The position numbers and the translations under genes are program-made. Source: Pseudomonadota bacterium (GTDB lineage: Bacteria; Pseudomonadota; Gammaproteobacteria; Nitrosococcales; Methylophagaceae). From it: a stretch of DNA of 64,000 nt. Below the pieces are notes generated by a model. That model saw only the letters and a list, made by a program, of their open reading frames with translations. It made no database searches and was not told where the DNA came from. Positions 4,418 to 39,356 of this stretch are shown here, in pieces (the first letter of the stretch is position 1; each line of letters starts with the position of its first letter). The DNA is taken from the NCBI GenBank assembly GCA_030576275.1, contig JALIBN010000029.1:1-64000 (forward strand), given 5' to 3'.

Positions 4418-7400
4418 TTAAAAGCTTGGTCTTGAAATCCCTGGTCCATTAATAATGCTACGACCGCCTGAACTCGGACTAATTTGAATTTGCGTACTAA
4501 TACGTTCTTTCAGCACTTGTACATGAGAAATAACGCCAATCAATTTACCTTCTTGCTGCAAGCCAGCTAAGGTTTCTAAGGCGGTATCTAAGGCTTCTTC
4601 ATCTAGGGTTCCAAAACCTTCATCAAGAAATAATGAGTCCACTCGAACATTCTTGCTCGCCATTTGTGATAAGCCTAATGCCAGCGCGAGGCTGACAATA
4701 AAACTCTCGCCGCCCGATAAATTTTTCGTCGAACGTGTTTCGCCAGCTTGATAATTATCAACCACATTGAGTTCTAGCGGTTGTGCCTCGTCGCGGATTA
4801 ATAAATAACGATCGGTCATTTTCTGCAATTGTCGATTAGCATGACCAATCATCATTTCAAAGGTCAGCCCTTGTGCAAAATTGCGATATTTTTTGCCATC
4901 TGCTGAACCAATCAGTTCATGTAAGGTATTCCAACGAACACATTCTTTTTGCTGAGCTTCACTCTGTTCTAGGCGATATTTCAGTTGAACTCGTATAGAG
5001 TCATTGTCATTTAATTTCTGACGGATCGCGCCTATCTCCTCTTTCAGTACATTAAGATTAGCGGCCAGTTGCATCTGCTCTACCTTAAGTAAATCTAGTG
5101 GCTGATCTGTAATCTGTTTCGTAAGTTCAGAGGCCAAATACGATGTTTTATCCTGCAACCTTGCCATCAATGCTGAAAACTCATTTTTCAACAACTGATC
5201 TTGCTGTTGCAATGCCTTACGTTCATCATCATCTAAATAAGCGGCTATGTAGGCCTCTTCATTATTAAAACCAACGTTAAGTAATCGCAGATTAAATGCG
5301 ACCTCAGCCTTTTTTATTTGCTCACTTCTACTAAAGATTGCTTTGTTCAGTGTTGCAATATCCTGTTGTAACTTATTTAACGCCGTTTCTATTTCTTTGG
5401 CTAAATATCGCGCCTCATCCAGACTTTTTTCAGCCTGTTCTACGCCATTTATTAAATCGGTTTCCACCGAATCTGGATTTTTATCTGCAAATAGCGTCAC
5501 CCTTTCTTGTCTTAACAGATCAAGCTCACTGTTTAGCTGAATCATTAATGGTTGTTGAAGTTTCAAGTCCGATTCGATAGATGTCAGTTGTTCAGTTCGA
5601 TGTTTTATTTGGTTAATAAAGTTTGAGATAAGTAGCTCGAACTTAGCTTTATCTTGTTGCCACTCACGCCATTTATCACGTCGCTCGCTTAATTTATGGA
5701 AAGTATCATCGAGTGTTTCTATCACCAGACTTTTAACACCATAAATGGCTACTTCGTCTAATGTTGCCTTTTGTGCGTCTGATAATTGTAATGTCGCTGA
5801 AGCTAATTCTTTAGTCACACGTCCAACTGCCTGTTCCGCAGTCAGCTTATTATGGTTTATCATCTGTAGCCTTTTATCTAGCTCGGTCATTTCTGTTCTT
5901 TTTTTATCTAGGCCTTCACGCTCATTGGCAAGCTGTTGTTCGATATTTTCAACATCAAAGACAATACTTCTAAACTTTATTAGTCGAGTTTCATTATCAT
6001 GTTGCCATTGTGAGAGCTGCAATTCCGTCACTCCACCAGCAACAGCTAGTAATAAACAATACTGCGTTAGCAAGCCTTGCTCCTTGGAAACGTTATCGCT
6101 AATTGCTGATTGTTGTTGTTTATTGTGAACGAGGTCTTTGTTATTCTCAGCAAGTTTAATTCTCAGCTGAGCCAAACTCTCTGTATTTAGTTTCAGATCC
6201 GTTTTCACCGCATTTAAGCGCTTTACCGTGTCATCTAGCACAGCAATATTGCCTTGTGCAAAAGGATGCTCCTCAGATCCACACAATGGACAGGGCTCAT
6301 CATCATGCAAATGTTGGCGGGCATCCTCATATGACTCAATTTTTTTCTGCAACATGTGCTGTGTTTCGAGCAATTGTATTTCGCGTCCTAATGATTGATT
6401 ACGCGTATCTTTCTCAATTATTTGCTGATTTAAACCAGCCACATCATCATTTAATACTATTTCTTGCTGTATTAGTTCTTTTTGTTGCTCGCTGAATTTA
6501 GACAGTGCCTGCAGTGATATTTGGCTTTGTTTAACTTGTTCTTGTCGTTCGGTAAGGCTAGCAAGTTCTAGACGCCAATCTTTCAATGTACGTTTATCTA
6601 ACTTCTGAACGAGATTATTTTGTAGTTGAGTGACGCTACTTTGAATAAGCTCAAATTCATTTTTATGCTGCTTTAGCAATTCAGACTGCAACTGCCATGT
6701 GTATGCAGTTTCGAGCTTTGTGTGTTCAGCATAAGCCAACTCATTTACTTTCAGCTGTTGTTGGTCTGCATAGCCACGTAATAAGTGAAATTTATGTTCA
6801 ATATTAGCTAATTGTTCTATCAGCCCTTCATCAGCCTGATGGCTAGTGATTAAAGCCATCAACCCCGTCAGCTTAATTTGATTTTTATCTCTTTGGTAAC
6901 TGTCTTGATTTTGTTGACCTCGTAAGGTGTTTAACTGTTGCTTGAGATGACTAATGGCATCGTGAACTGACTGAAGAGGATGCTGTTTTTCTTGAACCTT
7001 GAAATCAAGCTCGCGTACTTTCCTGATCACGACTTGTGTTTGTTTGTGCTCGATTTTTTTTAATTCCAGGGTTGAGATAGCAGTATTTAAACTTTGTAAC
7101 ACCCCTTTACGTTGAACCTCTATTTCAGGCAGAGCCTGTTGGCGGTTAGAAAGTTCTTCCTGACTTAGTTGCTGTTCATTACGCATCGCAGTAATGCCAG
7201 CATAATCAGCCGACAACTCTAGGGCCAATTTTGCCTGCTCAAGTTTATCTAATTCAGGTTGAAAGGCATGCTGGCGAATGACTAAGTCTTGTTGCTGGTC
7301 GGTAAGTTTAACTAGATCAGATTGTGCATTTGCCATACCTTCAAGCCATGATATGGCCTTGATTTTCTGTGCTAAGTCTTCGTTCAGCGCAACATCAGAC

Positions 7401-21651: not shown

Positions 21652-22626
21652 ATGGTTAATGAATACGGATTAATACATGCCCTATTGCTTGATGGCCAAG
21701 GCTCAGCATCAGAAGTAGCAATTGATGAAATTCATAACTGGACCAAAGAGCAAGGCCTACTCTGGTTACATTTTGACTACACGCATCCTGAGTCTGAAGA
21801 ATGGTTATTAGAATCGTCAGGACTAGATAAAATCATCGCCCAAGCATTATTGGAAGATGAAACGCGACCTAGAGCTACGCTGATTAACGACGGAATGTTG
21901 ATTGCCCTTCGTGGCATAAATCACAATCCTGGTGCAGAGCCAGACGATATGGTCGCCCTTAGAATGTGGGTTGATGAGCATCGTATCGTGACATCTCGTC
22001 GACGTAAATTAGGTGCCGCTAGCATCATTGCAACAGATTTATTACAAGGACATGGCCCAAAGAATAGCGGTGATTTTTTGGTGTCTATGATCAGTCATAT
22101 TGTCAGTGGCATGTCCGATACTATTAATGACTTTGAAGAACGCACCGCTGATTATGAAGATGCAGTATTAAGTGGTGAAACAGGAGGCTTACGTTATGAT
22201 CTTGCTAATTTACGTCGCCAAACCATCACCATTCGTCGTTATTTAGCACCTGAGCGCGATGCCTTCTCCCGACTTTTAATCGAAAAAGTATCTTGGCTTA
22301 ATGCTGAGCATAATATTCAAATTCGTGAAATAAATGACGCCTTACTTCGCCATATTGAAAACCTTGATGCGGCACGTGATCGCGCAGCGGTAACACAAGA
22401 AGAACTTGCTAGTCGCATATCAGAACAATTAAATTCACGGATGTACGTATTATCAGTTGTGACCACGGTATTTTTGCCCTTAGGTTTTTTAACGGGCTTA
22501 CTAGGCGTTAATATTGCCGGTATTCCAGGTTCAGAGAATCACCATGCATTCTGGATATTCATTGCTATTTTAGTTGCGCTGGTTATTAGTCAGGTTATTC
22601 TTTTTCGCTGGAAGAAATGGTTCTAA
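21652..22626 (+). CDS. zntB: ZntB-like zinc transporter (CorA superfamily)
   Basis: A 324-residue CorA-superfamily inner-membrane transporter of the ZntB type. The large N-terminal cytoplasmic domain (1-260) leads through a long helix to two membrane helices at about 266-288 and 298-318. The signature loop between them reads GVNIAGIPG (285-293), the ZntB form of the CorA GMN motif. ZntB moves zinc and related divalent ions; direction of transport is debated. The C-terminus RWKKWF is normal. It precedes the copper efflux operon but has its own leader. Confidence 0.88.
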   Translation: MVNEYGLIHALLLDGQGSASEVAIDEIHNWTKEQGLLWLHFDYTHPESEEWLLESSGLDKIIAQALLEDETRPRATLINDGMLIALRGINHNPGAEPDDMVALRMWVDEHRIVTSRRRKLGAASIIATDLLQGHGPKNSGDFLVSMISHIVSGMSDTINDFEERTADYEDAVLSGETGGLRYDLANLRRQTITIRRYLAPERDAFSRLLIEKVSWLNAEHNIQIREINDALLRHIENLDAARDRAAVTQEELASRISEQLNSRMYVLSVVTTVFLPLGFLTGLLGVNIAGIPGSENHHAFWIFIAILVALVISQVILFRWKKWF

Positions 22627-23311: not shown

Positions 23312-24691
23312 ATGTGGAAATTAAGATTTACTAGTTCTAGTAAAAGTTTATTGCTGATTGTATTTATGTGTTCGACCCAACTCAGTCGAGCTGATGGTTT
23401 AAATGGTTTAAATGGTTTAAATGGTTTAAATGGCTTAAATCAGCCAAGGCCTGAAAAAAGCGCTAGTGAACATATCGACCAATTAACCTTGAATGCCGCC
23501 TTATCACGCGTCCAACTCGAAAATATTGGCCTAGCCGAAATTCAAGCACGTGCTGAAGCCATGTCAGTAATTCCCTCGCAAGAGGGAAGCCTGCCTGATC
23601 CGATGATTAGCTTTAATGCACTCAACCTACCCACTAATAGTTTTAGCGTTAGCCAAGAAGCGATGACCCAATTACAGTTTTCTATTAGTCAAAAGCTACC
23701 TTATCCGGGTAAGTTGGCCTTAAAAGAGAGTGCCGCTCGTCGCATGGCTGATGTGGCGGACTCGACCGTCGAAGAAATGCGGCTTAAGTTGAATCAAGAT
23801 GTTAAAACTCTCTGGTGGCAGTTATTCTTGCTCGACCGCTCACTTGACGTTATCGAGATAAATAAGACCTTGCTGAGACAATTTATTGAAATCGCTCAGA
23901 CTAAATATAAGGTTGGCCAAGGTTTACAACAGGACGTATTGCTAGCGCAGTTAGAGTTATCGAAGCTTATTGACCATACGATTCAACTAACAAGTGCTCG
24001 TAAACAGAGCTCAGCACAACTCAATGCTTTACTGAATCAGCCTAGCAACCAAAATATCAAAATGCCTGCTTTAGCCGAAATTGATATCGCATTGCCGAGA
24101 CTATTATCAGCTCAATCGGTGTTTGATTTGGCAGAAAAACATCGCCCCGCACTCACTCAGCAACGTTTATTAATTGATGTGGCAACAGATCGACAAAAAT
24201 TGGCTGAACGAGATTTATTCCCTGATTTTAATGTAGGTGCGGCCTATGGCTTTCGTGATGGCAACAACCCCAACGGTTCTAATCGCGCTGACTTAATGTC
24301 CTTCCAAGTGGGGATTAACCTACCCATATTTGCAGAAAATAAACAAAAAATGGCTATTTCACAACGACATAGTGAAGTCAAGCAACAGCAGTTTGCTTTA
24401 CAAGATAGATGGCTCAGCATTCAAGCTGATATTACCTCAGCCATTGCAGAATACGAGCAAGCCAAGGAGCAAGTTTTGCTATTTAAAACTGGTATCATCC
24501 CACAGGCACAGCAAACAGTCGCATCGATGTTGGCTGGCTATCAAGTTAATAAAGTCGACTTTCTCAATTTGATTCGAGCTCAAATAACACTCTATAACTA
24601 TCAAACAAACGAATGGAAAGCGATCAGTGATGCTAAATCTGCCTTAGCCAAGTTAGTCGCCACTGTCGGTGAGGAAAATATTTATGAATAA
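23312..24691 (+). CDS. cusC: CusC/CzcC-type outer-membrane efflux channel (TolC superfamily)
   Basis: A 459-residue outer-membrane factor for heavy-metal RND efflux. A signal peptide (to about residue 27) is followed by a striking run of five Gly-Leu-Asn triplets. Two outer-membrane efflux repeats follow, with conserved segments such as GSLPDPMISF, QLQFSISQKLPYPGK and FPDFNVGAAYGFRDG. It trimerises and passes ions from the CusBA complex across the outer membrane. Its stop overlaps the cusB start by eight bases. The GLN run is not part of the family fold and probably lies in the N-terminal tether. Confidence 0.88.
   Translation: MWKLRFTSSSKSLLLIVFMCSTQLSRADGLNGLNGLNGLNGLNQPRPEKSASEHIDQLTLNAALSRVQLENIGLAEIQARAEAMSVIPSQEGSLPDPMISFNALNLPTNSFSVSQEAMTQLQFSISQKLPYPGKLALKESAARRMADVADSTVEEMRLKLNQDVKTLWWQLFLLDRSLDVIEINKTLLRQFIEIAQTKYKVGQGLQQDVLLAQLELSKLIDHTIQLTSARKQSSAQLNALLNQPSNQNIKMPALAEIDIALPRLLSAQSVFDLAEKHRPALTQQRLLIDVATDRQKLAERDLFPDFNVGAAYGFRDGNNPNGSNRADLMSFQVGINLPIFAENKQKMAISQRHSEVKQQQFALQDRWLSIQADITSAIAEYEQAKEQVLLFKTGIIPQAQQTVASMLAGYQVNKVDFLNLIRAQITLYNYQTNEWKAISDAKSALAKLVATVGEENIYE
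23396..23440 (+). repeat. 9-bp tandem repeat GGTTTAAAT x5 coding Gly-Leu-Asn
   Basis: Four perfect copies of GGTTTAAAT and a fifth reading GGCTTAAAT lie in frame just after the signal peptide of the CusC-like channel. Changes in copy number keep the frame, so the tether length can vary without loss of function. Confidence 0.95.
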
Positions 24692-26108
24692 ACCAACCTT
24701 ATTCTCTCTGACATTAGTCAGCGGGCTAATTCTTGGTGGATTGACCGCTTATTGGTTTGTTAAACAACAAATTCAACCGATGCCTCAAGATTTGGCTGTC
24801 GCCGAACAAATTGAGGAGCAAGCTAAGCCATTGTTCTACCGTAACCCGATGAATCCTGAAATTACTTCGCCTATGCCTGCCAAAGATAATATGGGGATGG
24901 ATTACATTCCTGTTTATGCTGACAATAAAATAGCAAAGGACATGGAAACAACAGGAACAGTGAAGATCGATCCCGTTACCGTGCAAAACATGGGCGTTAG
25001 AACGTCTATAGCAACTACCACAGCATTATCTCATGAGATACGCGCCATGGGTCGAGTCGCTTATGATGAAGAACACATCACCCGCCTTCATCCAAAAACA
25101 GAAGGTTGGATCGAAAAATTATTTATCGATAAAACGGGCACAACTGTCAAAACAGGCACGATGCTATTGAGCATTTATTCTCCTCAACTCGTCACCAGTG
25201 CACAAGAATATTTGCTGGCATTAAAAAGCTTAAAAACATTAGAAAACAGTCCTTTTGAAGACATTAGTTTTGGAGCCAAACAAATGGCTAAAGCGGCCCG
25301 TGAGCGCTTGGAGTTTCTTGATGTACCTGAACACCAAATTCGAGATTTAGAACAAACTGGTGACATTAAAAAAAACATCCATATCCATTCGCCGTTTAAC
25401 GGCGTTGTCATCAATATTGGTGCCCGAGAAGGTCAGCACGTTAGTCCTGAAACCGAGTTATATATGCTCGCTGATTTAACCAATGTTTGGGTATTTGCAG
25501 ATGTTTTTGAATCTGATTTACCGTGGGTTAATGTCGGAGATAAGGTTGAGATGACCTTAACCGGTATCCCAGGAAAAGTATTTAAAGGTAGCTTGTCTTA
25601 TATTTATCCTTATGCAGAAGCTAAAACCCGCACCATCAAAGTTAGGCTAGTCTTTGATAATGAGGATTTATTACTAAAACCCGATATGTTTGCCGATGTC
25701 ACTATCAACACACAACGGCAGGAAAATGCAATAACAATACCTTCAGAGGCGGTTGTACGTTCTGGTGAACGTGATCAAGTCTTTGTTGTGCGTGAACCAG
25801 GTAAGTTTGAACCGAGAACAGTCAAAGTCGGCTTAACGGCTGAGGGATTAACCCAAATTACCGAAGGCGTTGATGTCGGCGAAGAAGTGGTCACATCCAG
25901 TCAGTTCTTGATTGATTCTGAATCAAAACTGCGCGAATCTACCGCCAAGATGTTAGAGGCATTAACGATGGATAATACCAAAGCTAAACCAGAGCCAGCG
26001 ATCAAGTCAACATCAGCGTTCTCTATCGGTACGCCTGACGACTCAAACAACATGCGAATAGCCCCCAGCAACAGTAATTCCACAATGGATGTGAAGAAGC
26101 ATGATTGA
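24684..26108 (+). CDS. cusB: CusB-type periplasmic adaptor of Cu(I)/Ag(I) efflux
   Basis: A 474-residue membrane-fusion protein linking CusA to CusC and handing it metal. The start is the ATG at 24684, behind a strong GGTGAGGA ribosome site; a GTG at 24669 lies inside that site and is rejected. An N-terminal signal anchor (about 6-24) is followed by a CusB-type metal-binding segment rich in Met (YRNPMNPEITSPMPAKDNMG). This corresponds to the heavy-metal-binding domain but lacks its cysteines. Lipoyl and beta-barrel segments follow. The final 45 residues are low-complexity and contain little but polar residues and lysine. Confidence 0.9.
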   Translation: MNKPTLFSLTLVSGLILGGLTAYWFVKQQIQPMPQDLAVAEQIEEQAKPLFYRNPMNPEITSPMPAKDNMGMDYIPVYADNKIAKDMETTGTVKIDPVTVQNMGVRTSIATTTALSHEIRAMGRVAYDEEHITRLHPKTEGWIEKLFIDKTGTTVKTGTMLLSIYSPQLVTSAQEYLLALKSLKTLENSPFEDISFGAKQMAKAARERLEFLDVPEHQIRDLEQTGDIKKNIHIHSPFNGVVINIGAREGQHVSPETELYMLADLTNVWVFADVFESDLPWVNVGDKVEMTLTGIPGKVFKGSLSYIYPYAEAKTRTIKVRLVFDNEDLLLKPDMFADVTINTQRQENAITIPSEAVVRSGERDQVFVVREPGKFEPRTVKVGLTAEGLTQITEGVDVGEEVVTSSQFLIDSESKLRESTAKMLEALTMDNTKAKPEPAIKSTSAFSIGTPDDSNNMRIAPSNSNSTMDVKKHD

Positions 26109-29100
26109 GCGAATAATTGCCGCCTCCTTACGCGATAAGTTTCAGGTTTTATTAATCGCGACTTTGCTTATCGCCGCAGGGATTTGGGCTTTAAAAAACA
26201 CACCGCTAGATGCCATCCCTGATCTCTCAGATGTGCAAGTTATAGTCTTAACCAAATATCCTGGTCAAGCCCCGCAAGTCGTTGAAGACCAAGTCACCTA
26301 TCCACTCACCACTGCGATGCTATCAGTGCCAAAGTCAAAAACCGTCCGTGGTTATTCCTTCTTTGGCCTATCGTTTGTTTACATTATTTTTGAAGATGGC
26401 ACCGATATGTATTGGGCTCGTTCGCGTGTATTGGAATACTTGAATTACGTCAGCGGTCGCCTACCAGATAATGTGAATCCTAGCATAGGGCCTGATGCCA
26501 CCGGTGTCGGTTGGATATATGAATATGCCCTAATCGATAAAACCGGCCAGCATGATTTAGCTCAATTACGCTCATTGCAAGATTGGTATTTACGTTATCC
26601 CCTACAAACTGTCGATGGCGTATCAGAAGTTGCCTCTATCGGTGGTTTTGTTAAGCAATATCAGGTTGAAGTTAATCCCAATGCCTTACTTAATTACAAT
26701 ATTTCTCTGGCAAAAGTAAAAACAGCCATACAACGTTCCAATATTGATGTCGGCGGCAAGATAATCGAAATGGCCGAAACTGAATACATGGTGCGAGGTC
26801 GTGGATATATACATTCGATTGATGATTTAAAATCAATTTCGATCAGTGTCAGTGACAATGGTACGCCGATTCGGCTGACAGATATCGCTAATATTCATCT
26901 AGGGCCAGAATTACGCCGTGGCGTAGCTGATTTGGATGGTGAAGGCGAAGTGGCCGGTGGTGTGGTCATTATGCGTTATGGTGAAAATGCACTGAAAACG
27001 ATTGAAAACGTCCAACTAAAACTGGCTGAACTCAAAAAAGGCCTGCCTGCTGGCGTAGAAATTGTAACGGTTTATGATCGTAGTAAGCTCATCAACCGCG
27101 CTGTTGATAATTTAAAAAATAAACTGATTGAAGAGTCGCTAGTCGTAGCACTCATATGTATCTTATTTTTATTTCATATTCGTTCAGCTATGGTCGTTAT
27201 TATCACACTGCCCATAGGTATATTAATGGCATTTATCGTCATGCATTGGCAAGGGATTAATGCCAACATCATGTCACTCGGTGGCATTGCTATTGCCATT
27301 GGTACGATGGTGGATGGTGCCATCGTCATGATTGAAAATTGTCATAAACATCTGGAACGAGCCGCCAAAATTAAGCTAGCAGAATTAACAAGCTCTGAGC
27401 GTTGGCAAGCAGTAAGTACAGCGTCAAAAGAAGTAGGTCCAGCCTTATTTTTCTCTTTGCTCATTATTACCGTGTCATTTTTACCGGTGTTTACCTTGCA
27501 AGCCCAAGAAGGTCGTTTATTTGCCCCGCTCGCCTTTACCAAAACCTATTCGATGGCAGCAGCGGCCATCCTAGCCATTACCTTAGTGCCGGTATTAATG
27601 GGCTATTTTATTCGTGGAAAAGTCGTACCGGAAGCTAAAAATCCACTCAATCGTGTATTACATTTTATCCATGCTCCCGCTCTACGGATAGCTATTCGCT
27701 GGCGTTGGCTTACCCTGCTACTGACGGTTATTGTGTTGATTGCGACACTTGGCCCAGCAGGAAAGTTAGGCAGTGAGTTTATGCCACCACTGGATGAAGG
27801 CGATATTTTATATATGCCAACAACCTATCCTGGCATATCAATTAGTAAAGCACGAGAACTATTGCAACAAACAGATAAAATATTGAAAACCTTTCCCGAG
27901 GTGGAGCATGTTTTTGGTAAAGCAGGTCGTGCCGATACCGCAACTGATCCAGCTCCGCTTTCTATGTTTGAAACCACGATTAAACTCAAAGATAAATCAG
28001 CGTGGCCAGATCCGACCAAAACCACCAAACAGTTAATGAATGAAATGGATCTCGCGATTAATTTTCCTGGGCTAGCCAATGCATGGACAATGCCTATAAA
28101 AACTCGTATCGACATGTTATCAACCGGTATAAAAACACCCGTTGGCATTAAAATTAGTGGCCCAAGCCTCACCGTACTTGAAAAAATTGCCAATGATGTA
28201 GAACAAAGCATCAAACGAATGCCGGAAACCTTATCTGCTTTTGGTGATAAAGCCGCTGGGGGTTATTACCTTGATTTTGATATTAACCGTGATGAATTAT
28301 CACGTTACGGATTGCATATTGCCGACGTACAAGACGTTATTCAAATAGCCATTGGCGGTGTCAATGTTACTGAAACAGTTGAAGGATTAGAGCGTTATCC
28401 GGTTAATTTACGCTATCCACGTGAATTGCGTGACAATGTGGACGACTTAAAACGCATCCTAATCTCGACGCCGACAGGTGCTCAGATTCCACTGGCTCAA
28501 GTAGCCGATATGGAATTCCGTCGCGGCGCGCCGGTCATCAAAACCGAAGATGCCAGACCTAATGCTTGGGTTTATGTTGATATCAAAACAGACGATATAG
28601 GTGGTTACGTAGCAAAAGCCAAACTTCAAATTGAACAACAGGTGAAGATTCCTACTGGCTACACTTTGTCGTGGTCTGGTCAATTTGAATATATGGAACG
28701 CGCTGCCGAACGGCTCACTATCGTGGTCCCCGTCACATTGGCGCTCATCTTTTTATTACTGTATTTTAATTTCCGAAACCTCAGTGCGCCCTTGGTCGTA
28801 ATGTTAACGATTCCGTTTTCCTTGGTAGGGGGTGTTTGGTTAATTTACCTACTCGAATTTAACCTATCAGTAGCAGTAATGGTTGGCTTTATCGCTTTAG
28901 CAGGTGTGACGGCTGAAATTGGCGTTTTAGTATTAACCTTTATTGACCAAACAATCGCACAGTCTCGACATGAAAAAGCACAACAATGCGGCACAAAGGT
29001 AGAGGAAACGTCGCTTACTCATCAAGAAATCATGACGGCCGTGCATCGCGGCACATCAGAACGCGTGCGTCCGGTTGCAATGACCGCAACAGCTACCATC

Positions 29101-29283
29101 GCTGGTTTATTGCCTATTATGTGGAGTAGTGGAACAGGTTCAGAAGTAATGCAGCGTATTGCCGCCCCCATGGTAGGCGGTATGATAACCGCAACAATTT
29201 TAAGTCTATTAGTATTACCCGTCGTCTATGGGCTTGTCTTACAACTTAAAGAATACTTTAAGCATCAGGAATCACCATTATGA
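26101..29283 (+). CDS. cusA: CusA-type RND pump for Cu(I)/Ag(I)
   Basis: A 1060-residue heavy-metal-exporting RND protein in the inner membrane, driven by the proton gradient. It has twelve membrane helices and two large periplasmic loops. Segments typical of the monovalent copper/silver branch are present: IPDLSDVQVIVLTKYPGQ, GPDATGVGWIYEYAL, and WTMPIKTRIDMLSTGIKTP, which includes a methionine of the substrate path. The transmembrane acidic motif region GIAIAIGTMVDGAIVMIEN is intact. It overlaps cusB by eight bases and the next gene by four. Copper/silver rather than zinc/cobalt specificity is inferred from these motifs. Confidence 0.93.
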   Translation: MIERIIAASLRDKFQVLLIATLLIAAGIWALKNTPLDAIPDLSDVQVIVLTKYPGQAPQVVEDQVTYPLTTAMLSVPKSKTVRGYSFFGLSFVYIIFEDGTDMYWARSRVLEYLNYVSGRLPDNVNPSIGPDATGVGWIYEYALIDKTGQHDLAQLRSLQDWYLRYPLQTVDGVSEVASIGGFVKQYQVEVNPNALLNYNISLAKVKTAIQRSNIDVGGKIIEMAETEYMVRGRGYIHSIDDLKSISISVSDNGTPIRLTDIANIHLGPELRRGVADLDGEGEVAGGVVIMRYGENALKTIENVQLKLAELKKGLPAGVEIVTVYDRSKLINRAVDNLKNKLIEESLVVALICILFLFHIRSAMVVIITLPIGILMAFIVMHWQGINANIMSLGGIAIAIGTMVDGAIVMIENCHKHLERAAKIKLAELTSSERWQAVSTASKEVGPALFFSLLIITVSFLPVFTLQAQEGRLFAPLAFTKTYSMAAAAILAITLVPVLMGYFIRGKVVPEAKNPLNRVLHFIHAPALRIAIRWRWLTLLLTVIVLIATLGPAGKLGSEFMPPLDEGDILYMPTTYPGISISKARELLQQTDKILKTFPEVEHVFGKAGRADTATDPAPLSMFETTIKLKDKSAWPDPTKTTKQLMNEMDLAINFPGLANAWTMPIKTRIDMLSTGIKTPVGIKISGPSLTVLEKIANDVEQSIKRMPETLSAFGDKAAGGYYLDFDINRDELSRYGLHIADVQDVIQIAIGGVNVTETVEGLERYPVNLRYPRELRDNVDDLKRILISTPTGAQIPLAQVADMEFRRGAPVIKTEDARPNAWVYVDIKTDDIGGYVAKAKLQIEQQVKIPTGYTLSWSGQFEYMERAAERLTIVVPVTLALIFLLLYFNFRNLSAPLVVMLTIPFSLVGGVWLIYLLEFNLSVAVMVGFIALAGVTAEIGVLVLTFIDQTIAQSRHEKAQQCGTKVEETSLTHQEIMTAVHRGTSERVRPVAMTATATIAGLLPIMWSSGTGSEVMQRIAAPMVGGMITATILSLLVLPVVYGLVLQLKEYFKHQESPL

Positions 29284-29948
29284 TCGCGATTTTGCCAAAT
29301 TGGCATCCAATGTTGGTGCATTTCACCATCGGACTGTTAGGTACTTCCGTGGTATTTTATTTTGCATCAGCATTATTAGCTAAAGACCATAACTGGAAAC
29401 AACAATGGAGACATGTGGCCAACTGGAGTTTATGGTCAGGTTGCCTCGTTACCATTGGTACGGTGTTCGCAGGCTGGTATGCTTACAATACCGTCGCGCA
29501 TGATCAATCTTCACATGCCGCCATGACCTTACACCGTGATTGGGCACTGGCTACTGCCAGCCTCTTTTTAATACTTGGTCTCACTGCAGTCAGAATAGTT
29601 AAAAAAAATAAAACACCGCGCTATCTGTTTTTATCACTTACGGCGATTGCTGGTGCAATGTTACTGATTACAGGATTTTTAGGCGGAGAAGCAGTCTATC
29701 GTCATGGGTTAGGTGTCATGTCATTACCTACGGTAGAAGCTGACGAACATCAGCATCCTGACACTTCACCTCATAACCAAGAGAATAGTTCAGCCCACCA
29801 GCATCATGAAACGACTGACGAATCTGAGCCTCATCATCTTGATGAACTTATGACACCAAGTATAGATGTTGATTCCGATACAGAGATTAACGAACATTCA
29901 CATGATGCTGAAATGGAGGCAACAACCTTACATCAGCACCAACATTAA
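29280..29948 (+). CDS. DUF2231 membrane protein with His-rich tail
   Basis: A 222-residue protein with four predicted membrane helices in residues 1-140, starting with the NWHPMLVHFTIGLL motif of the DUF2231 family. From about 155 to the end it is a soluble tail very rich in histidine and acidic residues (EHQHPD, SAHQHHET, TLHQHQH). It overlaps cusA by four bases (ATGA), so it is translated with the efflux system. The tail could buffer copper or another metal at the membrane. The family has no firmly established role, so this is inference from composition and context. Confidence 0.78.
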   Translation: MIAILPNWHPMLVHFTIGLLGTSVVFYFASALLAKDHNWKQQWRHVANWSLWSGCLVTIGTVFAGWYAYNTVAHDQSSHAAMTLHRDWALATASLFLILGLTAVRIVKKNKTPRYLFLSLTAIAGAMLLITGFLGGEAVYRHGLGVMSLPTVEADEHQHPDTSPHNQENSSAHQHHETTDESEPHHLDELMTPSIDVDSDTEINEHSHDAEMEATTLHQHQH

Positions 29949-31131: not shown

Positions 31132-31401
31132 ATGGTTTCCGTCACTAGAATGGTTCTTGATGTCCTTAAACCTCATCAACCCAATGCATTGGATTTTTCA
31201 CAGGCCATTGCCGAAGTTGACTCAGATTATTATGTGCATTTAACGGTACTCGAAGTCGATGAAAGTACAGAGACTGTTGAGATTGTGCTTGAAGCGAAAA
31301 ATATAGATTTTGATGCCGTACAATTAGCTATCAGCGATATGGGGGGTTCTGTCCACAGTATCGATGAAGTCGAAGTTCATAATGACTCGGATATCCGTTA
31401 A
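31132..31401 (+). CDS. DUF211 family protein
   Basis: An 89-residue protein recognisable as DUF211 by VTRMVLDVLKPHQPNALDFSQAI at the N-terminus and a ferredoxin-like beta-alpha-beta pattern. The start at 31132 is chosen because a GAGG ribosome site precedes it; a TTG 15 bases upstream overlaps that site. DUF211 is, as I recall, best known from archaea, and its function is unknown. It stands three bases before a VIT-like membrane protein, with which it is almost surely co-translated. Confidence 0.82.
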   Translation: MVSVTRMVLDVLKPHQPNALDFSQAIAEVDSDYYVHLTVLEVDESTETVEIVLEAKNIDFDAVQLAISDMGGSVHSIDEVEVHNDSDIR

Positions 31402-31404
31402 GTT

Positions 31405-31989
31405 GTGATCAAACTCCTCGAGCAGGCTAAGTTCTTACTTCATATAACTAGTTCCCACCATATTGTACGGCGCTATTTTGTGGTCAATGGCTTTGATGGC
31501 GCACTCACAATGCTGGGACTCATCATTGGATTTTTACTCAGTTCTTCTACCGATTTATCAGTCATTGTTAACGCGTGTTTGGGCGCCGCTATTGCACTTG
31601 GGATGAGTGGCGTTAGTAGCGCATATGTGAGTGAATCAGCAGAACGACAACATGAACTTGGCAAATTAGAAGAAGCAATGATTAGTGATTTGCAAAGCAG
31701 TGCTCATGGACAAGCTGCACGTAGTGTTCCTTTGTTAATTGCACTGGTTAATGGCCTTTCACCGCTGATCATTTCCTTGCTGATCATCTCGCCATTATTA
31801 ATCTCTCATGCAGGACTTTCCTTGCCGGTGTCGCCCTTGTATTCTGCCATTTTTATCGCATTAATACTGGTTTTTCTTCTGGGTGTATTTCTTGGCCGAA
31901 TCGCCGGCGTATCATGGTTACGAAGTGGCATTCAGACCTTGCTGATTGCAATGATAACCATCGTGTTGATTTATCTATTTACTGGATAA
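31405..31989 (+). CDS. VIT1/CCC1-like integral membrane protein (TIGR00267-like)
   Basis: A 194-residue protein with about five membrane helices. The segment RRYFVVNGFDGALTMLGLIIGF and the GMSGVSSAYVSESAERQ stretch match the VIT1/CCC1 superfamily of iron/manganese transporters, in particular the archaeal TIGR00267-type members. The start is a GTG three bases after the DUF211 stop. No strong ribosome site is seen, so it probably depends on translational coupling. Transport of a divalent metal is a family-level guess. The acidic metal-binding helix of plant VIT1 is shortened here. Confidence 0.75.
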   Translation: MIKLLEQAKFLLHITSSHHIVRRYFVVNGFDGALTMLGLIIGFLLSSSTDLSVIVNACLGAAIALGMSGVSSAYVSESAERQHELGKLEEAMISDLQSSAHGQAARSVPLLIALVNGLSPLIISLLIISPLLISHAGLSLPVSPLYSAIFIALILVFLLGVFLGRIAGVSWLRSGIQTLLIAMITIVLIYLFTG

Positions 31990-32159: not shown

Positions 32160-32390
32160 ATGGACATTCTTATGATTGATATACCAAAACAATATATAAC
32201 TCCGATAATTACCACGACATCATCCAAAAGTGCCGTACGTTTTCATAGTATTCCTGATGAAGAAAAAGCACTAAAACCTGTTGAGCGACGTTTATCGCCA
32301 ACGCGAAGACAACCTCAACAATCTAAAATCCAAATTGAGCAACGCGTATCATCTGATCGCCGTCGTTCGGCGTTCAGTGCTAAGGCATAA
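32160..32390 (+). CDS. Small basic protein of unknown function
   Basis: Not recognised. It is a 76-residue frame with no strong ribosome site; an ATG at 32172 is an alternative start. The second half contains two related arginine-rich segments, VERRLSPTRRQ and EQRVSSDRRRS. This pattern is seen in many small bacterial proteins of unknown role. It has no signal peptide or membrane segment. It could be a chance frame, but the repeated motif favours a real gene. Confidence 0.45.
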   Translation: MDILMIDIPKQYITPIITTTSSKSAVRFHSIPDEEKALKPVERRLSPTRRQPQQSKIQIEQRVSSDRRRSAFSAKA

Positions 32391-34459: not shown

Positions 34460-34942
34460 ATGCATATAAAACTCAAACAAACGGCTCTTATCTTAGGTAT
34501 CAGCGCGCTTATGACAGGCCCTGCTTTCGGAAAAAACTCCGACAATCAAGGAGACCATGATAAGCAACATTCTTCACATCAGCACGAAGAAAGTTCATCA
34601 CATCAACATGATGATGACTCAAGAATATACTTTAACGATGATCGCACACAATATATCAAGCGTTATTACTCAGAATCTAAACATCATGGCAAAAACTGTC
34701 CTCCAGGACTCGCGAAGAAACACAATGGATGTAAGCCTCCAGGCCATGAAAAAAAATGGCGTAAAGGTGAGCGTTTATCGCAAGATGTAATTTATTACGA
34801 TTTACCCCATTCGTTAATTGTCGAACTAGGCCATGTACCAGCAGGTCAAAAAATAGTCCGCGTTGGCACAGATATATTGTTGATCAGTATCGGAACAGGA
34901 ATGGTGCTTGATGCTTTACAAGATCTTGATGATATTTTTTAA
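34460..34942 (+). CDS. RcnB-like periplasmic protein, His-rich
   Basis: A 160-residue secreted protein with a signal peptide ending near residue 24 (GPAFG). A histidine-rich linker follows (DKQHSSHQHEESSSHQHDDD). The C-terminal domain has CPPGLAKKHNGCKPPGHEKKW, VIYYDLP and DILLISIGTGMVLDAL. This matches the RcnB / CigR-type family, whose E. coli member tunes nickel and cobalt efflux. The GTGMVLDAL segment may be membrane-associated. The metal role here rests on the histidine stretch and on the neighbouring metal genes. Confidence 0.72.
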   Translation: MHIKLKQTALILGISALMTGPAFGKNSDNQGDHDKQHSSHQHEESSSHQHDDDSRIYFNDDRTQYIKRYYSESKHHGKNCPPGLAKKHNGCKPPGHEKKWRKGERLSQDVIYYDLPHSLIVELGHVPAGQKIVRVGTDILLISIGTGMVLDALQDLDDIF

Positions 34943-36917: not shown

Positions 36918-39356
36918 ATGGCAATCGATCCAATTTGTGGCATGAATGTAGATACAGACACTACTCCACATAAAACAATCTATAAGCAAGTGCCGTATTA
37001 TTTTTGTTGCACTGGCTGTTTGAATAAATTTCAAGCCTCGCCTGAACAATACATTCCGAGTGATGAACCGGTGGCCGGTTGTTGTAATCGGCATGCTGAG
37101 TTCAAACCTAAAACCACCCCCGAAAAACCCAGTATTCAGAATGAATATACTTGCCCGATGCATCCTGAAATTTTACAAGATAATCCCGGAAGTTGTCCTA
37201 AATGCGGCATGGCATTGGAATCGAGTTCGCATGCAATAACATCCACACAATACACTTGCCCAATGCATCCTGAAGTGGTGCAAGATCATCCTGGGAGCTG
37301 TCCTAAATGCGGTATGGCATTAGAAGCAACAACGGTTGAAGTACATGAAGACACCAGCGAATTAGATGATATGTATCGTCGCTTTTGGGTCAGCAGTCTA
37401 TTTGCCATACCCGTATTTATATTAGCGATGATAGCTGATATGGCGCCCCAGTGGCTACCCAGTTCGCTTTCCATGTTACAGATTCAATGGATTGAAGCGG
37501 CACTGGCCACACCAGTAGTTATCTGGGGCGGCTGGCCATTTTTCGGTCGTGCGTTGCAATCACTAGTCAACCGACATCTAAATATGTTTACATTAATAGG
37601 TTTAGGTGTTTCCGTTGCATGGTCATATAGTCTTATTGCCTTAGTTTTTCCAAACCTATTCCCCGTCAGCTTGCAGTCTGCTGATGGCACAGTACCGGTT
37701 TATTTTGAAGCGGCAGCGATGATTACAGTACTGGTTTTACTGGGCCAAGTTCTGGAATTACGTGCTCGAAGTCAAACCAATGCGGCGATTAAATTACTGC
37801 TGGGTTTAGCTCCTAATACTGCCAGAATTGTCCGCGATAATGGTAATGAAGAAGATATTTCTCTTTCTGATGTTCACGTAGGCGATATGCTTAGGGTTCG
37901 TCCTGGTGACAAAGTACCCGTTGATGGGGTTGTTATTTCAGGGAATAGTACGGTTGATGAATCAATGGTCACCGGCGAATCGATTCCTGTTGCAAAAACA
38001 GTGAAACACCAACTGATTGGCGCGACCGTAAATGGTACCGGCAGTCTGATCATGCAGGCTGAAAAAGTTGGTGGTGAGACCTTACTCGCTCAAATTGTAA
38101 ACATGGTTACCGAAGCTCAACGATCTCGTGCCCCCATTCAAAAACTGGTCGATACTGTCGCAGGCTATTTTGTTCCCATGGTGATTATTGTCGCCCTATT
38201 CACCTTCATCGGCTGGAATATTTGGGGCCCTGAACCCCAAATGGCACATGCCATTATCAATGCTGTTGCCGTACTCATTATTGCCTGTCCTTGCGCATTA
38301 GGTTTAGCAACACCAATGTCTATAATGGTTGGTACAGGTCGTGGTGCGGTCAATGGCGTGTTGATAAAAAATGCCGAAGCATTAGAAGTCTTAGAAAAAG
38401 TCGACACATTAGTAATTGATAAAACGGGCACATTGACCGAAGGTAAACCCAAACTAATTAAAGTAATTGACTATGCAAGTTTTTCTGACAAATACGTATT
38501 ACAACTGGCTGCCAGCTTAGAACGGGCGAGCGAACATTCACTTGCCGAAGCAATCGTAAACGGTGCTTTATCACGAAACATCGACTTATTAGATACCACT
38601 GAATTTTCTTCAATCACCGGCAAAGGTGTCAGTGGTAAAATTGATAACCATGATGTCGCTTTGGGTAATATCAGCTTACTTGAAAGTATGGACGTTGATG
38701 TGAGCGAACTGACGGAAAAAGCTGATACATTAAGGAAAGAAGGCCAAACAGTGATGTTCGTGAGTATTGATGGCCAAGCAGCAGGACTGATTTGCGTTGC
38801 TGATCCAATTAAAATTTCAACCCCTGAAGCGATTCATGACTTACATAACGAAGGCATTAGCATTGTTATGCTTACTGGTGATAGTCATGCCACGGCGATG
38901 GCAATAGCACAAGAATTGGGCATCGATAGTGTGCATGCCGGAATTTTACCTGAACAGAAAGCAGACATCATCAAGCAACTTCAAGCCGAAGGTAAAGTAG
39001 TTGCGATGGCTGGCGATGGTATTAATGATGCACCAGCATTAGCACAAGCCGATGTCGGTATTGCTATGGGAACGGGCACTGATGTCGCGATAGAAAGTGC
39101 TGGTGTGACCTTGGTAAAAGGCGATTTGCGAGGCATAGTGAAAGCAATACGTTTAAGTCGAGCCACTATGGGAAATATTCGTCAAAATCTATTTTTCGCC
39201 TTTATTTACAATGCTCTGGGCGTACCGATTGCAGCAGGTGTTTTATTCCCAGTATTCGGCCTATTACTGTCACCGATGATAGCGGCAGCAGCCATGAGCC
39301 TCAGTTCAGTATCAGTCATTAGTAATGCCTTAAGATTAAAACGAGCGAAACTATAA
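36918..39356 (+). CDS. Copper P1B-type ATPase with YHS and two heavy-metal-binding modules
   Basis: An 812-residue inner-membrane Cu(I)/Ag(I)-exporting ATPase. The N-terminus has a YHS domain (ICGM at 6-9, CCTGC at 30-34). Two heavy-metal-binding domains follow, each CPMHPE...CPKCGM (79-98 and 114-133). There is no classical HMA (GMxCxxC) domain. The catalytic core is intact: TGES actuator motif, CPC transport motif (C457, C459), phosphorylation site DKTGTLT starting at D501, and [20 protein letters not shown]. The two binding modules are near copies of each other, so the second probably arose by duplication. The layout resembles SilP/CopF-like pumps of metal-resistance loci. Confidence 0.94.

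What the first reader, a model, noticed from the sequence alone, without database searches (positions are those of the whole stretch)
31132..31989. DUF211 gene coupled to a VIT/CCC1-like membrane protein
Two uncharacterised families best known to me from archaea are separated by three bases, and the second uses a GTG start without a clear ribosome site. This points to a tightly coupled two-protein system, possibly a membrane metal transporter with a small soluble regulator. I do not know it to be described.
Basis: partly seen in the sequence, partly recalled or inferred. Interest (0 to 1): 0.6.

Follow-up and report, generated by a model that had tools for sequence, protein, structure and literature searches.

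The report
Split VIT-type metal transporter with DUF211
A small soluble protein of unknown function (DUF211) is encoded directly before a shortened iron-transporter-like membrane protein, the two are usually kept together in bacteria and in salt-loving archaea and often sit beside calcium pumps, which suggests a two-part metal-ion (perhaps calcium) transporter.

Summary
In detail: DUF211 (31132-31401) and a VIT/CCC1-like membrane protein (31405-31989, GTG start) lie three bases apart. The pairing is not local. In an even draw of 369 gammaproteobacterial genomes, 40 carry DUF211 and 37 of these have a short VIT directly downstream; 22 of 22 haloarchaeal plasmid loci inspected show the pair (one with a broken VIT). 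None of 92 full-length VIT1 hits in the same genomes lies beside DUF211. The paired VIT keeps the VIT1 fold (Z 15.9 to EgVIT1) and Asp43, but lacks the cytosolic metal-binding domain and the Glu72 and Met80 of EgVIT1, and has two invariant glutamates at the cytosolic end of TM2. The pair often adjoins P2A-type (Ca2+-type) ATPases: 14 of 39 sample loci against 0 of 30 full-length VIT1 controls, and 8 of 22 haloarchaeal loci, with annotated Na+/Ca2+ antiporters in 4 more. Best reading: a two-subunit divalent-cation exporter, most likely for Ca2+, in which DUF211 supplies in trans the metal-binding or sensing part that the VIT has lost. Pairing, loss of the domain and context are shown; transport, ion and contact are inferred. 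No paper on the pair was found in the library searched. New variant of a known kind.

The parts
31132..31401 (+). DUF211 (COG1888/arCOG04140) protein, 89 aa, ferredoxin-like fold; proposed soluble metal-binding or sensing subunit
   Evidence: PF02680 E 1.1e-26; AlphaFold model pLDDT 95.8; Z 15.2/14.6/14.1 to 3bpd/2x3d/2raq; D10 and D43 in 108 of 108, H75, S76, D78 in at least 106 of 108 bacterial and haloarchaeal rows
31402..31404 (+). three-base junction, no clear ribosome-binding site for the second gene; probable translational coupling
31405..31989 (+). VIT/CCC1-type membrane protein, 194 aa, five predicted TM helices plus an N-terminal helix, without the cytosolic metal-binding domain of VIT1
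   Evidence: PF01988 in two pieces around the missing segment; model pLDDT 88.3; Z 15.9 to 6iu3; 44 gap columns against EgVIT1

Best explanation
The two genes encode one two-part transport module. The membrane protein is a dimeric VIT-type divalent-cation/H+ exchanger (by homology) that moves a divalent cation, most likely Ca2+, out of the cytosol. Canonical VIT1 captures metal with a cytosolic domain between TM2 and TM3; here that domain is gone and its job is done in trans by DUF211, which binds or senses the ion in the cytosol and docks at the cytosolic end of TM2 (invariant Glu77 and Glu80) to load or gate the transporter. Where the Ca2+-type ATPase is in the operon, the pump is a high-affinity route and the exchanger a second one. 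Shown here: recurrent, near-obligate pairing, a layout that fits translational coupling, the VIT1 fold, loss of the metal-binding domain, and Ca2+-type transporter neighbours in bacteria and archaea. Inferred: transport, direction, the ion, physical contact and the role of DUF211.
For: Co-occurrence: DUF211 in 40, the VIT subfamily strongly in 38, both in 37 of 369 genomes, Fisher p 3e-46, not corrected for phylogeny. A short VIT adjacent in 37 of 40. Haloarchaea 22 of 22 inspected (L173 with a frameshifted VIT). VIT1 fold; Asp43 kept, Glu72 and Met80 lost, metal-binding-domain segment deleted, Glu77/Glu80 in 87 of 87 bacterial and 21 of 21 haloarchaeal rows. 0 of 92 full-length VIT1 hits beside DUF211 (positions compared by eye). 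P2A-type ATPase within 1.5 kb in 14 of 39 against 0 of 30 controls, p 1.3e-4; the 31 full-length ATPases at +2 on the same strand all carry M4 PEAL, M5 N..E and M6 N..TD; the best solved relative of the one tested is a bacterial Ca2+-ATPase (6zhf). Haloarchaea: P-type ATPase in 8 of 22, annotated Na+/Ca2+ antiporter in 4 of 22. Distances of DUF211 and VIT correlate (rho 0.81, 0 of 199 permutations as high). Covariation between the proteins leans to cytosolic VIT positions (top 40 pairs 55%, shuffled mean 39%, 5 of 200 as high; 44% and 11 of 200 when partners are swapped only among close relatives): suggestive only.
Against: No biochemical evidence. Most bacterial loci (66 of 110) have no P2A ATPase in the stretch held, and the window locus has none nearby; its genome has two elsewhere. 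Of the 14 near ATPases, one is an 82-residue fragment (L048), one is on the opposite strand (L051) and one, upstream in L049, lacks the calcium-site pattern (M5 G..E, M6 NLVTN), as does the upstream one of L043. The ATPases score best against a PMR1-type (Ca2+/Mn2+) model, below its cut-off (8 of 8). One of the annotated Na+/Ca2+ antiporters (L157) has no NCBIfam match at 1e-20 and another (L161) is just below its cut-off. Plant VTLs lack the metal-binding domain and transport iron, with no DUF211 partner mentioned in the passages seen (PMC10794610), so the missing domain need not be replaced. Thermococcales DUF211 is listed as linked to ArsR regulators, not to VIT (PMC9425974). DUF211 without an adjacent VIT: L143, G312 (truncated DUF211), G254 (nothing VIT-like in the 170 bases before the contig end, nor in the genome) and G362, which keeps both genes 434 kb apart.
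Confidence: 0.5

Rival explanations
1. The same two-part module, but exporting Mn2+ or Fe2+, as characterised VIT/CCC1 proteins do; the ATPase neighbours are Mn2+/Ca2+ pumps of PMR1 type.
For: EgVIT1 and PfVIT are Fe2+/H+ antiporters (PMC10794610 passage); the plasmid annotation attaches 'intracellular manganese ion homeostasis' to the haloarchaeal partners; PMR1-type is the best NCBIfam model of the ATPases; in the window a metal-efflux RND system and a heavy-metal ATPase lie near.
Against: Met80, a predicted metal ligand of EgVIT1, is Gly69 here and Glu72 is Ala61; the +2 ATPases keep the residues of both SERCA calcium sites (assignment recalled); haloarchaeal neighbours are annotated as sodium:calcium antiporters or calcium-translocating ATPases; no Mn riboswitch or other Rfam family at the gathering score in 12 loci or the window.
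Confidence: 0.27
2. DUF211 does not bind the VIT protein; it is a cytosolic ion sensor or chaperone that serves several transporters (VIT, Ca2+-type ATPase, Na+/Ca2+ antiporter) and is merely co-expressed.
For: DUF211 occurs in Thermococcales in an ArsR context (PMC9425974); the further neighbours vary; a few DUF211 genes stand without an adjacent VIT (L143, G254, G312, G362); remote fold matches include HMA and NikR C-terminal domains, which also share this common fold.
Against: Co-retention with VIT is near complete, while every other neighbour is optional; slight covariation at the cytosolic face.
Confidence: 0.15
3. The VIT-like protein is no transporter but a membrane anchor or regulator (with DUF211) of the neighbouring Ca2+-type ATPase.
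For: It has lost pore residues Glu72 and Met80; an ATPase follows in many loci.
Against: The pore Asp (D31) is invariant in 108 of 108 rows and the VIT1 fold is kept; most loci lack the ATPase.
Confidence: 0.08

Closest known systems
VIT1/CCC1 vacuolar iron transporters (PF01988; EgVIT1, PDB 6IU3)
   Same: VIT1 fold (Z 15.9 over 166 residues), pore Asp43 = D31, Pfam score above cut-off
   Different: No cytosolic metal-binding domain (44 gap columns), Glu72 and Met80 not kept, invariant Glu77 and Glu80 instead; a DUF211 gene accompanies it in nearly every genome seen
MbfA type: ferritin-like domain fused to a VIT core
   Same: VIT core also lacks the middle segment of the VIT1 profile, and a different module is attached
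   Different: Module is a Rubrerythrin/ferritin-like domain in cis; here it is a ferredoxin-like DUF211 protein in trans. MbfA exports iron (PMC4902296, passages)
Plant VTL proteins (such as MtVTL8)
   Same: No metal-binding domain; pore Asp kept; Glu72 absent; said to derive from an archaeal lineage (PMC10794610, passages)
   Different: VTL keeps the Met80 equivalent (Met96) and has Glu100, of a TMH1-TMH2 salt bridge, at EgVIT1 Gly84 (here Ala73); no DUF211 partner is mentioned in the passages seen
DUF211 archaeal proteins of solved structure (MTH889 2RAQ, Archaeoglobus protein 3BPD, SSO6206 2X3D)
   Same: Same family and fold
   Different: No function or partner is given in the entry titles or in the passages seen

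Membership tests
DUF211 (PF02680) | score above the curated cut-off over the whole domain | tested here: met
   93.2 bits against 22.1, residues 4-84 of 89 on profile 2-82 of 89
DUF211 (PF02680) | ferredoxin-like beta-alpha-beta-beta-alpha-beta fold as in 2RAQ, 3BPD, 2X3D | tested here: met
   model elements E H E E H E; Z 14-15
DUF211 (PF02680) | oligomeric state of the solved members (7, 14 and 8 chains deposited) | not testable with these tools
   chain counts only
VIT1/CCC1 (PF01988) | score above the curated cut-off | tested here: met
   38.8 bits against 28.1 in two stretches; haloarchaeal L157 46.7, L179 42.8, and L169 55.5. The divergent partner in L038 is below (24.2)
VIT1/CCC1 (PF01988) | five-TM VIT fold | tested here: met
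   helices; Z 15.9 to 6iu3, next unrelated row 8.3
VIT1/CCC1 (PF01988) | pore aspartate (EgVIT1 Asp43) | tested here: met
   D31 in 87 of 87 bacterial and 21 of 21 haloarchaeal rows
canonical VIT1 (EgVIT1 type) | Glu72 and Met80 in TM2 | tested here: not met
   aligned to A61 and G69; essential residues per PMC10794610 passage
canonical VIT1 (EgVIT1 type) | cytosolic metal-binding domain between TM2 and TM3 | tested here: not met
   44 gap columns; profile hits in two pieces, 2-68 and 129-212 for the window gene
VIT1/CCC1 (PF01988) | Fe2+/H+ (or Mn2+) antiport | not testable with these tools
   needs transport assays
TIGR00267 | score above the NCBIfam cut-off | tested here: not met
   75.8 bits against 156.95; two haloarchaeal members and L169 85-94
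MbfA | N-terminal ferritin-like domain | tested here: not met
   only VIT1 and a sub-threshold hit in the 194 aa; contrast L223, L225
plant VTL | absence of the metal-binding domain | tested here: met
plant VTL | Met at the Met80 position and Glu at the EgVIT1 Gly84 position (as in MtVTL8) | tested here: not met
   G69 and A73 (V in haloarchaea)

The most novel reading that the evidence does not exclude
DUF211 is the detached metal-binding subunit of a VIT-type Ca2+ exporter: a two-component Ca2+/H+ exchanger found in archaea and bacteria that would give the first function to one of the widespread uncharacterised archaeal proteins and would show the VIT core swapping its cytosolic module (built-in domain, fused ferritin-like domain, or separate DUF211).
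Probability: 0.3. Interest if true: 0.75.

Novelty: new variant of a known kind. Interest (0 to 1): 0.56.

Why it matters
DUF211 (COG1888) is listed for 52 Sulfolobales and 42 Thermococcales genomes in PMC9425974 and as arCOG04140 among the uncharacterised conserved proteins of PMC6393860 (passages seen); structures were released from 2007 on, but no function is given there. A near-obligate partner with a known transporter fold, and Ca2+-type transporters next door in two domains of life, turn 'unknown' into a direct test. If right, it also adds a detached-subunit design to the VIT/CCC1 family, where the role of the cytosolic domain is said to be unclear (PMC10794610 passage), and names a candidate prokaryotic Ca2+ exporter.

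Tried and rejected
Chance neighbours: rejected. Ordinary VIT1 that happens to lie there: rejected, since none of the 92 full-length VIT1 hits of the sample (my count of the list) lies beside DUF211, and the window genome has its own ordinary VIT1 elsewhere (C5:54996-55619). Riboswitch control: no Rfam family at the gathering score in 12 loci (of those then held) or in the window. Phage carriage: no match to the window's DUF211 in the phage collection at 1e-5. Recent transfer from haloarchaea: not supported by the tree, which is unrooted; long rows (L038, L169, L170) are unsure, and two pairs of its 26 bacterial rows are duplicates. Natural DUF211-VIT fusion: none noticed; the long open frames I looked at are upstream extensions. 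A solved relative of the VIT by sequence: none convincing; found only by fold. HMA- and NikR-like domains among remote DUF211 fold matches are no evidence of function, the fold being common. Other neighbours (MgtE in 8, CorA in 6, an MscS-like family, named by eye, in 6 of 113 loci by clustering; stricter tblastn finds MgtE in 5 and CorA in 2 of 110) are too loose to build on. Na+/Ca2+ antiporters like those of L157, L160 and L161 were not found in the 110 bacterial loci.

Limits: the 80 named loci are the best of 394 hits to a profile made from paired members, so they are biased towards pairs; the 369-genome sample is the fair count. Nine loci duplicate others and were dropped before clustering. 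Greedy ORF choice hid some genes (the VIT in L038; ATPases in L053, L055, L108). Archaea were reached only through haloarchaeal plasmids: 22 of 27 records inspected, not H3, H4, H14, H22 and H25. Methanogens, Thermococcales and Sulfolobales were not; among the 14 control genomes the four with DUF211 are all among the nine with VIT1, adjacency unknown. The DUF211 paper search matches word starts: of its 3 papers, two hold DUF2112 or DUF2117 instead and the third uses DUF211 where its title has DUF221.

Full report
What is there. The window holds DUF211 at 31132-31401 and a VIT-like gene at 31405-31989 on the + strand, three bases apart, the second with a GTG start. DUF211 is certain (PF02680 E 1.1e-26; solved relatives 2raq, 3bpd and 2x3d by sequence). 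The second gene is a VIT1-family protein by Pfam (38.8 bits, cut-off 28.1) and falls below the TIGR00267 cut-off. The host seems to be a gammaproteobacterium (titles of its nearest named relatives), genome 2.37 Mb; its name is not known to me.

How general the pairing is. In an even draw of 369 genomes of the class, 40 have DUF211 and 38 have the VIT subfamily strongly (a 39th hit, G122, is a weak match to an ordinary VIT); 37 have both (Fisher p 3e-46, not corrected for relatedness). In 35 of the 40 the VIT ORF follows DUF211 directly in my first count. Two more were hidden: L038 (G306), where a long opposite-strand ORF masked a divergent VIT-like gene (24.2 bits, below the Pfam cut-off), and G088, where the VIT runs off the contig end. 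So 37 of 40. The other three: G254 (contig ends 170 bases after DUF211, with nothing VIT-like there, nor in the rest of that 77% complete genome), G362 (both genes present, 434 kb apart) and G312 (truncated DUF211, no partner). The two counts of 37 differ in membership: co-occurrence includes G362 and not G306, adjacency the reverse. The one genome with the VIT subfamily but no DUF211, G325, has the VIT at base 129 of a contig. In the window's genus 4 of 29 genomes carry DUF211, so presence is patchy. Outside the class it is rare: 2 of 148, 1 of 199 and 1 of 188 genomes in the phyla of three named loci titled Desulfogranum, Phycisphaerae and Myxococcota (each count includes the centre genome). 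Among 113 non-redundant loci, mostly from the biased best-80 list, VIT is at +1 in 107; of the other six, L038 and L067 (G088) proved paired, L047, L065 and L075 are the three above, and L143 has no VIT beside it.

Archaea. tblastn with the window's DUF211 finds 27 plasmid records, all haloarchaeal by name. I inspected 22: 21 show DUF211 followed at once by 'VIT1/CCC1 transporter family protein'; in the 22nd (L173) the VIT is there but frameshifted and not annotated. DUF211 and VIT overlap by one base in several (for example L157, L160, L178).

The paired VIT is a distinct subfamily. In the class sample 92 VIT1 hits (my count) run unbroken over nearly the whole profile, while DUF211-linked ones match in two pieces with the middle missing, for the window gene 2-68 and 129-212 (the second piece begins between 92 and 132 in the linked genes listed). 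None of the 92 lies beside a DUF211 position; 7 of them are in DUF211 genomes, on other contigs or far away. The window genome has such an ordinary VIT at C5:54996-55619. The model of the window protein (61 sequences, pLDDT 88.3) matches EgVIT1 6iu3 at Z 15.9 over 166 residues and 6iu4 at 15.7, the next row being 8.3. Against EgVIT1, 44 columns between TM2 and TM3 are deleted; Asp43 is D31 in 108 of 108 rows; Glu72 and Met80 are A61 and G69; Glu77 and Glu80 are invariant in 108 of 108. Asp43, Met80 and Glu72 are the pore residues named for EgVIT1 in PMC10794610 (passages). The domain's own ligands (E102, E105, E113, E116, M149, M150, E153) are from my memory; the chain has those letters at those numbers when counted from Asp43, and in the alignment none is kept in the window protein. 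The tree of 74 rows (72 different) puts 26 bacterial and 11 haloarchaeal paired VITs and L169 on one side of a 99/96 branch, with bacterial (99/100) and haloarchaeal (98/98) clades apart.

DUF211. Model pLDDT 95.8, Z 15.2 to 3bpd. Conserved in both domains of life: D10, K13, P14, P17, E41, D43, G71, H75, S76, D78 among others. Acidic residues and a histidine on what should be neighbouring strands would suit a metal site; that is inference, and no coordinates were inspected.

Context. P2A-type ATPases lie within 1.5 kb of the VIT in 14 of 39 sample loci and in 0 of 30 control loci of full-length VIT1 (p 1.3e-4; the controls are the 30 best-scoring hits, a few shorter at contig ends; the window itself, the 40th, was not in this count and has none). 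Of the 14, L048 is an 82-residue fragment, L066 a partial gene, L051 on the other strand, and L049 lies upstream and lacks the calcium-site pattern. By tblastn 44 of 110 bacterial loci hold one in the stretch held, of which L143 is doubtful. The 31 full-length same-strand ATPases at +2 all have PEAL in M4, N..E in M5 and N..TD in M6, the SERCA ligands of both Ca2+ sites (assignment recalled); those at other positions vary (L043 and L049 do not fit). The closest solved proteins to the L052 ATPase are calcium-transporting ATPases, 6zhf and 9euq (lmo0841), at 616 bits. In NCBIfam the best model is PMR1-type Ca2+ for 8 of 8 tested (four bacterial, four haloarchaeal), below its cut-off each time; L181 passes the PMCA-type Ca2+ cut-off (527.2 against 507.05). 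In haloarchaea a cation or Ca2+ P-type ATPase is in the flank shown (3 or 4 kb) in 8 of 22 (L162, L173, L174, L176, L179, L181, L186, L187) and an annotated sodium:calcium antiporter in 4 of 22 (L157, L160, L161, L177), in varying order and strand, which looks like repeated recruitment. Of the two antiporters checked, L161 scores just under the TIGR00367 cut-off and L157 has no match at 1e-20. No background was computed for the haloarchaeal counts. The window locus has no such neighbour; its genome has two P2A ATPases elsewhere.

Coupling. VIT starts have a Shine-Dalgarno-like match of 4 nt or more in 16 of 96 loci, DUF211 in 59 of 101, so translation of VIT probably depends on DUF211. Distance matrices of the two proteins correlate (rho 0.81 over 84 bacterial pairs, 0 of 199 permutations as high). 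On 26 triples DUF211-ATPase (0.80) and VIT-ATPase (0.88) are as high as DUF211-VIT (0.76), so this shows co-inheritance, not contact. Inter-protein covariation leans to the cytosolic parts of VIT: top-40 pairs 55% against 39% shuffled (5 of 200 as high), or 44% with partners swapped only among relatives (11 of 200); for the top 20 the counts are 10 and 5, for the top 80 they are 1 and 7 of 200: a hint at most.

Mechanism. The VIT core is known with its own metal-binding domain (VIT1), with a fused ferritin-like domain (MbfA type; Rubrerythrin plus split VIT1 in L223 and L225; PMC4902296 passages) and bare (plant VTL, PMC10794610 passages). A separate DUF211 protein would be a fourth design. 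I think DUF211 captures or senses the ion and gates the VIT. Ca2+ is my first choice because of the neighbours and the loss of the pore methionine; Mn2+ or Fe2+ remain open.

Literature. Searches for DUF211, COG1888, arCOG04140, MTH889, TIGR00267, and DUF211 with 'vacuolar iron transporter' found no paper on the pair. PMC9425974 and PMC6393860 (passages) list the family as uncharacterised; PMC9425974 has it linked to ArsR regulators in Thermococcales. PMC12433260 (passages) describes the same VIT architecture for rice. The library holds open-licence papers only.

Noticed in passing
window 23312-29948: Outer-membrane factor, CusB-like and RND (ACR_tran) genes in a row, followed by a DUF2231 membrane protein with a His-rich tail: a likely metal-efflux system just upstream of the pair.
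   Followed up: partly
window 36918-39356: P-type ATPase with a YHS domain and two HMBD stretches, heavy-metal type; another P-type ATPase begins near the window's right end (C29:63855).
   Followed up: no
window 21652-22626: CorA-family transporter about 9 kb upstream of the pair.
   Followed up: no
window 32160-32390: 76-aa basic ORF right after the pair with no Pfam match.
   Followed up: no
window 34460-34942: Small His-rich ORF with a sub-threshold RcnB match (16.8 bits).
   Followed up: no
L038 (G306:C42), 5661-6695, - strand: A divergent DUF211 of different type with its own VIT-like neighbour in a gammaproteobacterial genome bin; possible contamination or a second lineage.
   Followed up: partly
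L169 (G538:C4), about 5257-6155: A genome in the phylum of L132 (Desulfogranum) has a DUF211 ending in the TPQD tail seen in many haloarchaeal members, paired with a VIT that lies outside the main bacterial clade.
   Followed up: partly
L076 (G040:C1) and L173 (NZ_CP085307.1): The VIT gene next to DUF211 is split into two ORFs or frames, while DUF211 is intact; sequencing error or decay.
   Followed up: no
L223, L224, L225: Gammaproteobacterial ferritin-like plus VIT proteins (MbfA type; L223 and L225 checked by Pfam) that also lack the middle of the VIT1 profile.
   Followed up: partly
L005 (G011:C28): In a congener the pair sits in a different neighbourhood, 3' of a terminase-like ORF and before a cold-shock-like gene (names by eye), so the site is not conserved within the genus.
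   Followed up: no
L180 (NZ_CP110251.1): In Halocatena marina the pair is followed by an ArsR-type regulator and arsD/arsA genes, reminiscent of the ArsR link reported for Thermococcales.
   Followed up: no
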